The translations under genes and the position numbers were made by a program. The notes below the pieces were generated by a model. That model was given only the letters and a program-made list of their open reading frames with translations, had not been told where the DNA came from and ran no database searches. A stretch of DNA of 64,000 nucleotides, from NCBI RefSeq assembly GCF_002078875.1, contig NC_034438.1:19887965-19951964 (forward strand), given 5' to 3'. Shown here piece after piece: positions 16,101 through 25,100 of this stretch; positions within the stretch are counted from its first letter, which is position 1, and each line of letters starts with the position of its first letter. This DNA comes from Numida meleagris (Eukaryota; Chordata; Aves; Galliformes; Numididae).

Positions 16101-19100
16101 AGAAGCTGTCGATATGGAATGTTATGAAATGTCAAGAACGTGCCTGATACAATATTCTCCTTCAGAGCTGTTATATATTCCTCTGTAATATATTCCTCAG
16201 AATTTGTTACTTAACTGTTTTTTCATTCCAATAAAGAAAGAAGTATAAGATGTATTTTTTATATAAAGATTAAGTAGAAGCTAAGATACTTACCTGGCAG
16301 GGGAGACACCATGATCAGGCAGGTGGTTTTCCCAGGGCGAGGCTCATCCCCTGCAATCCGGGTGTGCTGACCCCTGCAATTTCCCCAAATGCGGGAAACT
16401 CGACTGCATAATTTGTGGTAGTGGGGGACTGCATTCTATGATTCTGTGATATTAGCTTCTTCTTTTGAAGCTAATACCCTGTCTTCCCCTCTTCTTATTT
16501 ATCTAGTCAAATGTGTGCTCAGTCACATGTTTAATTAAGTATTAGTATTAGAAGGATCTCTTCTAAGTTTTGTTTTTGCAGTTGTCATCCTTACTTGGCC
16601 TTGGGTTTGTATGGTTTGCCTGCCAGTGATAAAGGTGGCTGGGGTGTTAATCTGAGTATCAGTTTAGGTTGTCCAGAGTGTTATGTGTAGTAGGTACTGC
16701 AACTTCCTCAATTATAAGTCACATCATAGCATTGATAAGAAACTGTGGGTGGGAAATGACGTTTAATCTTCCCTTGTTCAAAATATTTATTCATTTTTTT
16801 CTCCTATGCCTAATTCTTTATTACGGACTGGTCAGGAACAAATTTTCATTCATGATATGGCGTTAAGGCTTGTTTACAAGAGAAGGTGTACCAAGTAATT
16901 GCAAGGGATTTTGTCATTAAATGCAGCAGAGCTTCTGCAGGAAAGCGTCAAGGTGGGTTTTGAATATCTCCAGAGGTGGAGGCTCTACAGCCTCTCTGGG
17001 CAGCTTGTTTCAGTGCTATCTCACCCTAATAATAATTTCTGTGGCCCACCAGTGGATTCTGTCTAGAAATTCTGTGTCTGTCTTGAACTGAGGGGCCCAG
17101 AACTGGACTGAGTACTCCAGATGTGGCCCCACCAGGTCAGAGTGGAGGGGAGGATCACCTCCCTTGACCTGCTGGCCACACTGTCAATGGCATCCCTGGA
17201 TACAATTGGCCTTCTTGGCCACAAGGGCACACTGCTGGCTCATGGCCAGCCTGTTGTCCACCAGGACACTCAGGTTCTTCACTGCAGAGCTCCTTTCCAA
17301 CAGGCTGTCCCCTAACCTGTACTGCTGCCTGCGGTTATTCCTCCCCAGTTGTAGAGCTCTGAGTTTGCCCTTGCTGTGCTGCATCAGATTCCAGAAAGGT
17401 AGCTACAGTGGTTGAAATTTGGGAATTATTCAAGTTTTTTAAAAATCTTTGAGGTTTAATTAAACTTGTATTAACTATGATTCTTCTCTAGTTTGAACAG
17501 TTTAGTAAATATTGTAGTGAATAGTGGAGGATAGGGCTATATAGAGATAGATAGATACAAATGCAATTTTTTCAGCATATCACGTCTGTATATCTCATTG
17601 ATGGTTAGTCTTTTTTGTGTTACTGTTTTACTTGCAAGCTTACTACTCGCTCTGTGGATACTTTGTTTTTTCTTGTTGGCTGGTATAACAAATATTTTTA
17701 TTGGTACAATAACTATTTGCTGTGAGGTGAGAAATTTACTTTCCAAGTGAGTTTATCGTTTCTTAAGCACTTTCTGTCATTTTTCTAGACTTCAAAAGGA
17801 AGTAAGATTTGTAAAAGGGAGACATATGTATTTTCTTAACCTCAATGGGAAAAGTAATACTGTAGTTTTCTTGTTGTTTCTCAGCATGTTGCAAGTCCTC
17901 CTTGATTCTGCCTGATTATTTAATAATAAAAATTGCCAAGGAAGGAAAGGAAAGTAAATTACAAAGATTTCTTCTAATTTTTTTTTTTTTTGGTGGTACA
18001 TACTTACATGTATAAATGTTTTGTACTGTGAGTTTATTAAACAGGAATGTTTCTGCTGGGTTATTAATTGCATGTTGCAGCTTCTGTGTCTCCCCTTCAT
18101 AACAACTACAGTTGCTATTATATGTGTTGAATAGTGCTCAGTGGAAAACAGAAATTTTCAGTTATTGAAGCAGCAAATGAAGACTTCCTTTTTTTTTTTT
18201 TTTTTTCCCCTAGGCAGCAATACTTGAAGGAATCTCTCCCATATTTTGGATATTTCCCTGATCATCACAGAGACTGTTCATAACTATTTCATTATTCAGT
18301 TTTCTAAGGATAATATGCCAATTTATTTTTATTTTACATAATTGCCTATGTAAAATACATTAAAATAAAGTCAAATTTGAAAATGAATATTTTTATTCTA
18401 AAGAACAGTCTGTTTTCCTGTTGGTTTAATGGTCTCAGAATAAGGAACCAAATGCTGTGCAAATTATGAGTCTTGTTTGATACAGACTATGGCTAAATTG
18501 GACCGTGGACCAACTTTACTGGTTCTACTGATGTTGATTTTTATTAGATATTTCAAGAGACATCAACACTGATAGAATTAAAGGTCATTAAATGGTTGTT
18601 TTTTAAACTTTACTCTCCATCTCAACTCTTGGGGCTTTTGGCCAGCTCTAGATGAAAAACAAAGGAGAATTTCAGTTGACATTGTTTGGTATTTTAGATT
18701 ACAAACATAAAAAACGCTATTATTTATGGTTAGAATATTTTTTTTTAAAGATTTAGAAATGTAAGTTTCTTTTGACAGAACTTGGAAGAACTCTGCTTCT
18801 AAATTTTGTCCCTGACCATCTATTCTGCTTCATTTGCTTGTGTGCTTCCTGCATTTAGGCTTAGATTATTGTCGACAAAGATGTTGAATGATACTTTGCC
18901 CCTCATGTGAACTTATGCTTTGATTCTAGTGTAGTGTCTTTTGTTTGATTGTGGCTATTCATGGGCTTTGGCATCATCATTTTGCTGTACAAAATGTCTC
19001 ATGTCAGTACAAATTCTTATTTTTTTAGTTCCAGTGCTATTTTTAGGCTTAATCTCTAATTTTGCATCTCTTTTTATTATTTCACCCTTTCCTCCTTTGA

Positions 19101-22100
19101 TTATGTCACTGAACTTTGCAGGTGTTCAGTCCTGTGACAGATAAGCTAAGGATGTAATGTCTGGTCCTGAAGTGAGAGGACTATTTATAGTGTACATGTG
19201 CACTAAGTCTTCATCTGCACCGGGGACACCGAGGGAAACTGAAGCCTTGTACCTAGGCTGTGGCTTTTATAGCATACACAGAGCTGTGTGGATAAGTTAG
19301 CTGAAAAAGGTGGCCTAAAGTGAAACTTAGCTACGTGCCTGGATCAAGTCTGAGATGCAACTTAAAAATGTATTATAAATACATAATATACATGTGCATA
19401 AATATGTATGTAAATTATGTATGTAATGTAAATGTTATGTACCGTGGCATGTCACAAAATTCTTACATCTGATATTTTTGAGGCTTCCTGGGTCGGCTGA
19501 GGAGGTTTGCCTGGCTGGCATGGCAGTGGTTCTCCAGGCCCTGCCTTCCAGAATCACTGTTCTCCTTTTTGCAATACTGTACTTACATGAAGAGTAGTTT
19601 TGTTATGCAGGTAGATGGAACAATATAAATTCCTGTTTATTTAATAAAACATTTTATTTTCTGTCTGGACAATAAAACTATTTACAGATAAGGCAATAGT
19701 ACTGTTACTAATAGGTATGCTTCATTGTAATACCTAACTATCTTGACAAACCTTTTTAGAGCTCTCCTATTTAAAAAAAAAAAAAAAATTTAAGGCAGCA
19801 GTTGCAGATTAAGATGGTTCTTGGTTTTCTAGAAAAAACTAGTTGAGATTTCCTTTCCAACAATACTTCTGAAGCACAGATAAAATGGCTTCCTGTCTGA
19901 CAGTTTCCTGTATCCATGGCAACCTCACTTTAACTACTTCTTACTTAGTTTCCTGAATGAACAGTTGAAAATCCGGGGGCAAAATGTGAGAGTTGTAGAA
20001 CACAGCAGTATCACTTTTCCAAGCGTTTCGCAGATGAGTATACTCAGCTGATAACAGCCTAACAAACTGCAAAACAACGAAATAACAAATAATGACCATC
20101 AGATTTGGGGTAAGGAGTTGTTTCTGATTATTTTGAATGTAATTCAACTTTTAAAAAGGCAAAATTCAAATTATAAATAAAAGGAAACTTGTTGGCAATT
20201 CTACTGGAAAGCTATTGAAAAAGTTCCTTGTCATTTTGAACTACTTAAAATAGTTAATATACAGTATTGTGAATTTACTACAAGCCATTATTTTGGCAGC
20301 TTTTATTGTATAACCAATTAAGTATTTTCCACCTATTTTGGCAGTATCATAGAATTATATGATCATATCGTAGAATCATCTGCTATTTTGGCAGTGATTT
20401 GTTTTACTTTTCATTTACTTTGAACTACATGGAAAAAAAAATCAAACTCGTCGAAATTGCTTATTTGGCCTCACAGGACAATGTATTTGAAATACCAATC
20501 TTGAAAGTAACACTTGTATTTTTAAAAAAAAATCCTTAAAATTTCAAATGAATAATATTCATGAACTTTTTTTATCTCTACTAGCAAAGTCAGAGATGAG
20601 TGAGAAGGCCAAAGACAGGGATATGTGTGGACTACAAAGTTTTCCACCCTGCACAGGAGCATTCCTGCATCTCCTTAGCGGTTTTCTTTTGTTGCTGCTC
20701 CAGAAGGAGGTTCTTGGCTGTCCAGCTGTTTGCCAGCTCTGCACAGGGAGGCAAGTTACCTGTCGTAACTTGGGTCTTTCAAGCATCCCTCGGAACTTCC
20801 CCAAAACTACAATTCTTGTGTACTTCAGTGGGAATAATATATCACATGTCATTCCAAATGAATTAACAGGCCTTCAGAAACTTGCTGCACTTTACATGGA
20901 TAATTCCAGTATTTCATATGTACACCCAAAAGCTTTTGTGGACCTTCCTAAACTGTGCTACTTGCATCTAAATAACAATAATATTAAACGCCTGGATCCA
21001 GGAATTTTTGAAGGTCTTTCCAATCTTCATTATTTATACCTTCAGAATAATCAAATAGCTTTTGTTCCCAGAGGATTATTTAGTGATCTCCTTTCTGTTA
21101 GATATTTAGCACTTCAAGGAAATTGTCTCAGCGTCCTTGGAAGTGGAACTTTCTTGGGAATGAGAAATCTTCAAACACTTAACCTAGCCAATAATAAGAT
21201 TTCGCGGATATCAGATGCAGCATTTTGTCATCTTGAAAATCTTGTATACTTGTTCCTTGAAGGTAATAATTTAACACTTGTGCCATCAAATGCCATTGGA
21301 AGGCTCGGAAATCTTGAAAGACTTTCTTTATCTCACAATCCTATTAGATCAATACAGTGCTTTGCATTTAAAGGACTTAACAAGCTTAGATATCTGTCTT
21401 TAAAAAGTGTACAGCTAAAACATATTGCTGTAAATGGATTTTTTGGATTAAGCAATCTTAGCCAGTTAATCTTAAGTTATAATTATTTAGAAAATATAAA
21501 TTCCAGTACTTTTACTTCTTTGAACAGTTTAAAGTATCTGCAGTTAGATCGAAATAAAATAACCAGTATTGGTAATGGTATCTTTGAAAAAATGGGACAG
21601 TCACTTAAAATTCTCAATTTAGCATTTAATAATATTACAGAATTGCAGCCTGAAGTGCTCAAGCCCTTAGTGTCTTTAACTCACCTACATGTAAATTTTA
21701 ATCCTTGGAACTGTAGCTGCAAAATGCTTGGGTTACTTAAATGGCTGGCATCATCTCCCATTTCTGTTAAAATTCTTTGTCAGAATCCCATCAGCATGCG
21801 TGGCAGACCTTTGCATTACATCAGATGGACTCAGTTTGCAAACTGCAGTAGCCTTACCGCCAGCCCAGAAGCAGCCTGGAATCTGGAATCTGCAGATATC
21901 CATCACAGCCCTACCACTTTGCTGATGGCATGGCATAAGGGAAACAGTCGCAACCCATTTGAGCAGTTTATTAAGGCAAATACAAAGTACAGTGCTCTCT
22001 GGGAAGGAACTGGAGCTACATTTGCTAGCCCTTTCCCTTACGGAGAAAATGCTGCTGGAACTCTTTCACAGGCACCTACAATACTGTCAGTTTTACCAGT

Positions 22101-25100
22101 ACAAATACCAGCACAAATTATTCCTGTTACCAGAACCATAGAAGCAAAAAGTTTGTTTCCAACAGATGCTGCTCCTGTATCATTACAGACATCCATACTT
22201 TGTACACAACAGGTTGAAAAGCTGAATCAGGCCTTTGATGTTTTGCTAGCCTTTTTCGTTCTGGCTTGTGCTGTGATCTTGTTCCTAACCTACAAAATCA
22301 TTCACTTTAGACAGAAACTAAAGGTGCTGGAAAACTCAGGGGAGAAGAGAATAGAATATTACGGTTTTTATCAACCTGGCAGATACAACATAAATGATGC
22401 AGTGCAGTCTCTAAGTGAGAGTTCAGTGGGAGATTCAGAACTGGACCAAATTAGGCTGCTAAAGCGAACAGCTTCTGAAAGTCAGGCACAGGTCATATTG
22501 TTTGAACATTCATCATTGTAATTTACCTCAGTTGATTTGATGTTAATTTTATTGCAATCTGAAATGTCAAGAAGTCAAGAATTCGATTTTCTAAAAAATT
22601 TTTCCACTGATTAGAATCAGCTGGTTGATAGAATTGTGGAAAATAGTATAATTTGCATTATTATTTGCTTTCTCAGTGTTCTAAAGTTCATTGATTTTTA
22701 TTAAATGTCATTTAAACCTGATATGGATTACCTATGTTCCTGTTGTAGAATTCTTTCACTTGTAACGCAAGTATGTGTTCAGTGGAAAGAATGTTCATAT
22801 TATTTATTTTGCAGTACTTATGGATATTAAGTTTTTGTAGAAATTACACAGCTAACTTGAAATTGAAGGTAACTGTAGCAAGATCATGAAGCCAAGAAAC
22901 CTGGGGGAATGAAAAGAGAACAATGCTTAATGTATTTATTGCGTACCCAGTTTCTGTTCTGCCTCAGTTAATCATCACAGTTAAAGAATGAACATATTTA
23001 CAGCTAGTATGTTGAAACTCATGATGGAAAAAAAAATGATAATGATTTTGTTCACATCTCACATTTTAACATAAAGATTTGTGTACTCAGCCTGTATAAC
23101 AAATATATTAAAATGTGATTTTTTTAATAGTATGCATCTGTATCATTTTATGCTCATAACTTATTAGGGGTTAATATGGAAGCTAAATAGCTATTGGATT
23201 CAAAAATTGATAAAGTTTATAATATCTTGGATAATTGAATTGGTTAATTGTTGTCTGTAAAAAGATATTCTTGTTTATATAATGAAGTTTGAGGGAGTCT
23301 TTGGCCAGGTGAGAGGTATAAACTGATGAAATCTACTGACGATACTTAAGTATTTGTATATTTTGAAGTGTTAGGTCAAAATATGTTTTCTTAGAGAAGA
23401 CTAAACTCTAAGATTGTGCTTGAAATGATGAATATTAAATGCAAACTACATGGTTTGGATGTTTTAACTTTTTCATTTTTATTTAGAATACTGATGTTCT
23501 GTTTACGTTATTGTTAGGTTACATCTAGTGTATTGTGAGTTTATTTTCAGCTTGAATTTCTGTGAATTTTTTTCTTGTTAATCCAATAATTCAAGCTTTA
23601 GGCAGGAAAAAGTTATAGAAATAGGTTACAAATGGTCCAATCCTGTAAGAATTTCAACTAGCTGGATGGGATTTACTTTTTGTAGATACTGCTCATCTTC
23701 TACAAGTATGTATCCTAGAGACTTCAGTTACTTGGTTTATCTGCAGCTCAATTTTCAGGTACATCGTTTTGCACAGGGAAAAATGCATAACAGTGTTTTG
23801 ATAGCCATAATGTTGATTCAGCTTCATACTTGCACAGAAATATCTTACGCTCCCAAGATCTAGCATGGAGACCTGAGTGTTCTTTAAATGTGTAGGATGC
23901 TGTAGGGTTTCTGGCTCCAGCCAGCCTTCTGCCAGCATCACTAATGTGCATGGTCATGTTGTTGCGCTCCCTATCATCCTGTTTGTCCGTTTCCCTTGCA
24001 TTTCCAGGAATGACAAGATATTTTCTTCTGCCTGTACAAATGTAGACCTCGACTATACGATTATGGGTGTGAATGTGGAAGTCTACCCTACGTGCCTCTG
24101 TTGTTGCTTGCTACATCTTTCTACTGGATGTAACAAAATATAAGTTTCATTGAGATTTACTTTCATTGTATCATAATGCTATATTTTACTCTAATGTATA
24201 ATAGATTAAATGTTTCTGTCTGATGGAACACTTAATTCTGCTAGTTGGGCAAAGGCTTAAACTGTTTTGAGTTTCATGACTAGAAACTTAAGTTTTACTT
24301 ACACTTTTATAGCCATAGATATTAAATGTTATGTGCAAGTTTTCTTGTTTGGTTGTTTTTTTTGGAGAGAAATTGCTAACGACTCTCAAATTCATGCTTA
24401 ATTTTTTACTCCAATGGAGTGCTTTACTCTTTAACCTCTTCTTGTCCCTCCTACATAATTCGTTGTGGCTAGTGTTAAATTTATTGGGCTTTTTTGTGTT
24501 TTGAGGTTGTTTTTGTTTTTGTTTTCGTTTAATAACACCTGCACTATGTATGATTCTACAGTAGTAGGTTTGGTAGTCTTAAGTCTTGTATCTCTAAACT
24601 GTCAATTTTATATGGATGTCTTCAGAAGTAGCGGACTTTATTAGCACCTATGTGATGATCATTCCAATCAAAGCCAGTTAACCAGGTTTTCATAAGTAGA
24701 AATGCTGATGTGCCCATGTGAGAGAGAATTTCCTGGGGAACGGGTGAAGACTGAGACAGAAAAAGCCCCATTCTCAAACATGGGAGGCTGTGTGTTCCTT
24801 ATCTGTTCTCAGCAGAAGACCACAGTTCCCTCCGAAGGTGTTTCCTTTCCACAGACAAGCTTCTATAGGAATCATTTTCCAGATGTGTGTCTTACCATTT
24901 CCAGTGGTGGAGTCTAAATTAAATTGCTACTGTCAATCATCATCTCTGTAAGCGTTGCTGGGACAATAGAAACCATCTTACGGAGAGGAATCATCCTCCA
25001 ATAACCAATTTACAAACAATTTCCAGCTTTGCTGTATCAAGGAATTGAGGGGTGTAGCTGTGGGAAAGTGCTTTTGTTTGGCAGTTGGTAACTAAATGTT

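What the first reader, a model, noticed from the sequence alone, without database searches (positions are those of the whole stretch)
16286..16450. U1 snRNA / CR1 chimeric retropseudogene
A near-complete U1 snRNA copy (about 147 nt from its exact 5' end) switches mid-stem-loop 4 into two CR1 terminal octamers, ATTCTATG and ATTCTGTG. In mammals, snRNA chimeras arise by L1 template switching from the element's 3' end to another RNA. A U1-first, CR1-tail-last structure is the expected avian counterpart, because CR1 primes at its octamer tail and the enzyme then jumps to U1 RNA. It would be direct evidence that CR1 reverse transcriptase mobilises small nuclear RNAs.
Basis: partly seen in the sequence, partly recalled or inferred. 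Interest (0 to 1): 0.75.

Follow-up and report, generated by a model that had tools for sequence, protein, structure and literature searches.

The report
U1 snRNA–CR1 template-switch retropseudogene
A stray copy of the splicing RNA U1 was pasted into this bird-like genome fused to the tail of the jumping gene CR1, and many other U1, U2 and 5S copies in the same genome carry CR1 behind them, which suggests that CR1's copying enzyme hops from its own RNA onto small cellular RNAs.

Summary
Confirmed and extended. Window 16286-16432 is U1 nt 1-147 (145 of 147 identical to the genome's U1 genes), broken near the loop of stem-loop 4 and continued by two CR1 octamers (16433-16448). The window's own 1.04-Gb genome was searchable. 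Of 45 other U1, U2 and 5S pseudogene-like places, 19 have sense CR1 starting within 45 nt 3' of the RNA copy, against 187 of 4000 random positions; one has antisense CR1. One U2 fragment clearly ends in bare octamers like the focal copy, a second weakly. Most likely: CR1 target-primed reverse transcription with a template jump. Unexpected: T-rich linkers often separate RNA copy and CR1 (T fraction 0.53 in 19 chimeras, 0.26 before 21 other CR1 starts), as if the enzyme adds untemplated A to its cDNA before jumping, which the R2 enzyme does in vitro (PMC8857657). A hairpin at the focal 3' junction may be a snap-back product. No other bird genome could be searched, so the empty site is untested; U6, U5 and U4 searches did not complete. 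Single-copy pseudogene; no function of its own is suggested.

The parts
16286..16432 (+). U1 snRNA copy, nt 1-147, exact 5' end, broken near the apical loop of stem-loop 4
   Evidence: Rfam RF00003, 127.9 bits; 145 of 147 identical to the genome's own U1 gene
16433..16448 (+). two CR1 3'-terminal octamers ATTCTATG ATTCTGTG
   Evidence: like octamers end other CR1 copies
16285..16285 (+). single extra G between the candidate target duplication and U1 nt 1 (cap-derived or untemplated)
   Evidence: sequence; the reading is inference
16277..16284 (+). candidate 5' target-site duplication GAAGCTAA
   Evidence: family D6
16467..16474 (+). candidate 3' target-site duplication GAAGCTAA
   Evidence: family D6
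16449..16466 (+). 18-nt filler holding an inverted copy of the target; 10-bp perfect hairpin (16450-16459 / 16467-16476) with T-rich 7-nt loop TTCTTTT
   Evidence: pair I4; 19 of 200,000 random sites show an 8-mer with both a direct and an inverted copy

Best explanation
One retrotransposition event. The CR1 endonuclease nicked the target; the CR1 reverse transcriptase primed on a CR1 RNA 3' end, copied only the two terminal octamers, then jumped to a U1 snRNA inside stem-loop 4 (nt 147) and copied it to its 5' end, after which the insertion was closed. The same enzyme made many U1, U2 and 5S chimeras elsewhere in the genome, with jumps at many CR1 positions. Shown: the composite structure, the exact U1 5' end, flanks unlike a U1 gene, recurrence and orientation bias. 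Inferred: the enzyme, the order of steps, and that T-rich linkers are untemplated A added to the cDNA before a jump. More speculative: the hairpin at the focal 3' junction is a snap-back of the target primer made before the octamers were copied.
For: U1 starts exactly at nt 1, and 300 nt upstream has no BLAST match (E<=1) to the upstream region of a U1 gene. Octamers exact and tandem. Sense CR1 within 45 nt 3' in 19 of 45 other places vs 187 of 4000 random positions, binomial p 4e-14 (12 of 26 U1, 5 of 15 U2, 2 of 4 5S); antisense there in 1 of 45. CR1 breakpoints range from apparently near full length (L036: endonuclease domains PF14529 and PF03372 in an ORF) to the bare tail. Octamer-only U2 copy L095. 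T fraction in the 15 nt before CR1: 0.53 in 19 chimeras vs 0.26 before 21 other CR1 starts, p 5e-5; vs 0.27 before the 18 left after dropping 3 doubtful ones, p 1e-4. R2 RT needs untemplated addition to jump and adds mainly A (PMC8857657, passages).
Against: No empty orthologous site was seen. The target-site duplication is only 8 bp and needs an 18-nt filler. The focal U1/octamer junction has no linker, and 5 of the 19 BLAST-called chimeras have linkers of 0-4 nt (L039, L042, L048, L097, L084); two of the 14 longer linkers are not clearly T-rich (L041, L092). 26 of 45 places fail the BLAST test. The L092 match is weak (65 percent, E 2e-7). Two chimeras (L037, L040) break within about 8 nt of each other in CR1, though their U1 ends differ (161 and 139). 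In vitro R2 additions are 3-4 nt while linkers here reach 43 nt. CR1 identity rests on copies in this genome, one Pfam-scanned copy and recalled CR1 sequence; no CR1 library was at hand.
Confidence: 0.88

Rival explanations
1. Two independent insertions: a U1 retropseudogene made by another enzyme landed exactly at a pre-existing CR1 tail, or a CR1 tail inserted later beside U1.
For: A later CR1 insertion into a U1 copy seems to occur: in L050 a CR1 splits a U1 copy (by eye).
Against: No CR1 match within 300 nt 5' of the focal U1. U1, U2 or 5S followed by sense CR1 recurs in 19 of 45 other places against 1 antisense.
Confidence: 0.04
2. The octamers belonged to the target site before insertion and U1 alone was inserted.
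For: None direct; the empty site could not be seen.
Against: U2 copy L095 shows the same octamer ending and many copies show CR1 at the same place.
Confidence: 0.04
3. For the linkers only: T-rich tracts are fossil oligo(U) tails of 3'-trimmed small RNAs (uridylation and DIS3L2 surveillance) rather than untemplated A added by the reverse transcriptase.
For: Seven CR1-joined U1 copies stop at nt 137-148 in stem-loop 4 (L036, L040, L041, L044, L046, L047, L050). DIS3L2-bound RNAs carry U tails, typically 6-8 nt, and truncated tRNA clones up to 12 U (PMC5069555, passages).
Against: Linkers contain 20 percent A; in L036, whose U1 part is 96.5 percent identical to the gene, the tract still holds several A. 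In that paper mature and partly trimmed snRNAs mostly lacked uridylation. The loop of the focal hairpin, on the target side of the octamers, is T-rich too.
Confidence: 0.25
4. For the 3' junction only: the palindrome was already at the target and the insertion landed at its centre.
For: AAGTAGAAGCTAAGAT and ATATTAGCTTCTTCTT flank the insert as inverted repeats (I1).
Against: The third copy GAAGCTAATA makes the snap-back reading about as economical; undecided.
Confidence: 0.5

Closest known systems
U6/L1 template-switch chimeras of mammals (Doucet et al. 2015, PMC4476161, passages seen; Buzdin 2002 seen only as a reference)
   Same: snRNA copy fused in sense to the 3' part of a LINE; same proposed template switch
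   Different: the LINE is CR1, not L1; the RNA is U1 (also U2, 5S). Doucet et al. report no U1/L1 template-switch chimera among 33 U1 sequences and one inconclusive U6 copy with a CR1-like element in turkey
tRNA-CR1 SINEs TguSINE1 and PittSINE of passerines (PMC5729268, passages seen)
   Same: small-RNA head plus CR1 tail; template switching by CR1 RT proposed for PittSINE
   Different: those are multicopy SINEs with tRNA heads; the focal chimera is single copy with a U1 head
SINEU of crocodilians (Kojima 2015; only the reference was seen; content recalled)
   Same: by recall, SINE heads from U1 or U2 snRNA
   Different: by recall, amplified families mobilised by Tx1 elements rather than CR1
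Template jumping with untemplated addition by the silkworm R2 reverse transcriptase (PMC8857657, passages seen)
   Same: the jump needs untemplated addition, mainly A on the cDNA, which is T in the sense strand
   Different: in vitro, 3-4 nt; the linkers here reach 43 nt and belong to CR1

Membership tests
LINE template-switch snRNA chimera | snRNA copy with its exact RNA 5' end and no gene-like upstream region | tested here: met
LINE template-switch snRNA chimera | fused in sense to LINE sequence that runs to the LINE 3' end | tested here: met
   16433-16448 octamers; only 16 nt of LINE are present
LINE template-switch snRNA chimera | target-site duplication | tested here: inconclusive
   8-bp GAAGCTAA, but with an 18-nt filler before the 3' copy
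LINE template-switch snRNA chimera | clean empty site in an outgroup | not testable with these tools
   no other bird genome is held; a search of the own genome for an allelic copy did not complete
LINE template-switch snRNA chimera | recurrence as independent events | tested here: met
   19 of 45 other small-RNA places, with differing CR1 breakpoints and flanks; L037 and L040 break close together
SINE (such as SINEU) | many copies of the same composite unit | tested here: not met
   none of the other 29 listed places matches the query to its end; the list is a lower bound
Functional U1 gene | complete stem-loop 4 and U1-gene upstream region | tested here: not met

The most novel reading that the evidence does not exclude
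Joining to CR1 is the main route by which U1 pseudogenes (and a good part of U2 and 5S ones) form in this genome, and their T-rich linkers, together with the focal snap-back hairpin, are an in vivo fossil record of untemplated A addition by a CR1 reverse transcriptase before template jumps, in tracts far longer than reported for R2 in vitro.
Probability: 0.45. Interest if true: 0.65.

Novelty: new variant of a known kind. Interest (0 to 1): 0.52.

Why it matters
It gives multi-locus sequence evidence that a CR1-clade reverse transcriptase can mobilise U1, U2 and 5S RNA by jumping templates, whereas L1 in mammals does this mainly with U6 and U6atac (PMC4476161, passages). It offers a set of natural junctions from which the chemistry of CR1 jumps (direct versus with untemplated A) can be read, and it shows the raw material from which small-RNA-headed SINEs could arise in birds.

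Tried and rejected
Decayed full-length U1: rejected, identity is 145 of 147 up to nt 147 and then stops. Duplicated U1 gene: rejected, the upstream 300 nt do not match and stem-loop 4 is incomplete. SINE family: not supported, no second copy listed. A 3' splice-site reading of the linkers (several end in CAG or TAG before CR1): looked at by eye and dropped, since the AG appears to belong to CR1 (by eye and recall). Linkers as a general feature of CR1 5' ends: not supported by 21 other CR1 starts. Those are BLAST starts, not proven insertion ends; three are doubtful (two in L036, one of them only where my reference began, and one in L050 that begins inside U1), and without them the 18 others give 0.27. 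One CR1 tail near L080 does have a poly-T run upstream without touching U1. Against L081 it is 110 of 119, so it is not used as a young copy.

What the 45 leaves out: 8 U1 places (6 intact genes, one cut by a gap, one at a contig end), 4 U2 places (3 taken as genes by score, 1 partial copy on a small contig) and 2 5S places taken as genes. L036, L050, L095 and L098 count as misses in 19 of 45.

Full report
What is there. The window holds one gathering-level Rfam match, U1 at 16286-16448. Against the genome's own U1 genes (six copies identical over 164 nt in a cluster on contig C3) it is identical at 145 of 147 positions from nt 1. After nt 147 it leaves U1 and reads ATTCTATGATTCTGTG, two CR1 terminal octamers. 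The 300 nt upstream have no BLAST match at E<=1 to the upstream region of a U1 gene.

The genome. The window is C35:19887965-19951964 of an unnamed 1.043-Gb genome in 2461 contigs. CR1 content and contig sizes suggest a galliform bird; I suspect helmeted guineafowl, but this is recall and untested. None of the other 29 places listed for the 181-nt query matches it to its end, so the focal chimera is not a SINE as far as the search shows (the tool calls such lists lower bounds).

Other U1 copies. together give 27 pseudogene-like U1 places including the focal one, after setting aside 8 intact, gap-cut or contig-end gene copies. By BLAST against CR1 segments of other loci, 12 of the 26 non-focal places have sense CR1 starting within 45 nt of the end of U1 (L035, L037, L039-L044, L046-L048, L053). 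Two more look CR1-joined but are not among the 12: L036, where U1 1-141 precedes an apparently near-full-length CR1 (endonuclease domains in one ORF; the ORF1-like ORF had no Pfam match and is so named from recall), and L050, with a short CR1 tail by eye, later split by another CR1 inside its U1 part. With the focal copy that makes 15 of 27. L045 has antisense CR1. Eleven have none within 45 nt: L031, L038, L049, L051, L052, L054, L074, L077-L080.

Other RNAs. U2: 19 places, of which 15 pseudogene-like ones were fetched. Five of 15 have sense CR1 within 45 nt (L087, L089, L090, L092, L097), L092 only weakly. L095 ends in ATTCTGTGATTCTATG, the focal arrangement again. L098 ends in a poorer octamer-like stretch seen by eye that the one-mismatch scan did not list. 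5S: 6 places; L081 and L085 were taken as genes (122 of 124 columns alike); of the other 4, L082 and L084 are followed by CR1.

Control. In 123,879 nt from the window and from flanks more than 1.5 kb from U1, 187 of 4000 random positions have sense CR1 starting within 45 nt, 61 of them at position 4-45 and the rest at position 1-3, that is inside or at the very edge of CR1; 19 of 45 small-RNA places do (binomial p 4e-14). Self-matches were removed for loci but not for the window, which raises the control.

Independence. CR1 breakpoints and 5' flanks differ between loci. L037 and L040 break within about 8 nt of each other in CR1 but at U1 161 and 139.

Linkers. Of the 19 BLAST-called chimeras, 14 have 10-43 nt between RNA copy and CR1 and 5 have 0-4 nt. 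The 14 linkers hold 278 nt, 62 percent T and 20 percent A; L041 and L092 are not clearly T-rich. In the 15 nt before CR1 the T fraction is 0.53 in the 19 chimeras and 0.26 before 21 other CR1 starts (p 5e-5); dropping three doubtful starts gives 0.27 for 18 (p 1e-4). I found no source for this sequence in U1 or CR1 by eye. The silkworm R2 enzyme needs untemplated addition for template jumping and adds mainly adenosines (PMC8857657, passages); A in the cDNA is T in the sense strand. I therefore read the linkers as untemplated addition. Fossil oligo(U) tails remain possible (PMC5069555, passages), although that paper found mature and partly trimmed snRNAs mostly not uridylated. The focal U1/octamer junction and L095 have no linker and look like direct jumps.

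Focal 3' junction. GAAGCTAA lies just 5' of U1 and again at 16467; between the octamers and the second copy lies an 18-nt filler with TTAGCTTC, giving a 10-bp hairpin with loop TTCTTTT. Of 200,000 random sites 19 show an 8-mer with both a direct and an inverted copy so placed, and 1637 a direct copy alone. One reading: the nicked target primer gained a short A-rich stretch, folded back, copied itself, and then jumped to the CR1 octamers. The other: the palindrome was there before. Only the empty site decides.

Known work. Doucet et al. 2015 (passages) report U6/L1 chimeras, no U1/L1 template-switch chimera among 33 U1 sequences, and one inconclusive U6 copy with a CR1-like element in turkey. 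The passerine SINE paper (passages) proposes template switching by CR1 reverse transcriptase for a tRNA-headed SINE. A 2026 catalogue of L1 chimeras contains none of the terms CR1, chicken, birds or U1 snRNA (term search). My paper searches listed no title or abstract reporting U1-CR1 chimeras in birds; the listings were partial and the library lacks most subscription papers and the SINEU paper.

The odds did not need to change.

Noticed in passing
L038 (U1 5-164) and L100 (U2 1-43), 3' flanks: Both small-RNA copies are followed by much the same T-rich, LTR-like sequence (TTTTATCTCAACCCAT...), by eye; perhaps small RNA joined to an endogenous retrovirus LTR. L038's flank also has a 70.7 percent match in L051.
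   Followed up: no
L050, about 1430-2530 of the locus: A CR1 seems to have inserted inside the U1 part of an older U1-CR1 chimera, with U1 sequence on both sides (by eye).
   Followed up: partly
L036, upstream of U1: An antisense CR1 copy lies within 300 nt 5' of the U1-CR1 chimera.
   Followed up: no
L080, about 150-230 nt 3' of U1: A CR1 tail preceded by a long poly-T run, not adjacent to U1.
   Followed up: no
L045, 3' of U1 1-145: U1 is followed at once by antisense CR1, as in twin-priming chimeras or insertion beside an older CR1.
   Followed up: no
window 20491-22521 +: 676-codon ORF of a leucine-rich-repeat protein; by recall it resembles LRRC70, but only matches far below cut-off to bacterial leucine-rich-repeat models were obtained.
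   Followed up: partly
window 16960-17392 -: A separate CR1 fragment on the minus strand about 0.5 kb from the chimera.
   Followed up: no
L082 and L083: Two 5S copies share sequence differences from the 5S gene L081 (by eye; counts), which hints at a second 5S variant as their source.
   Followed up: no
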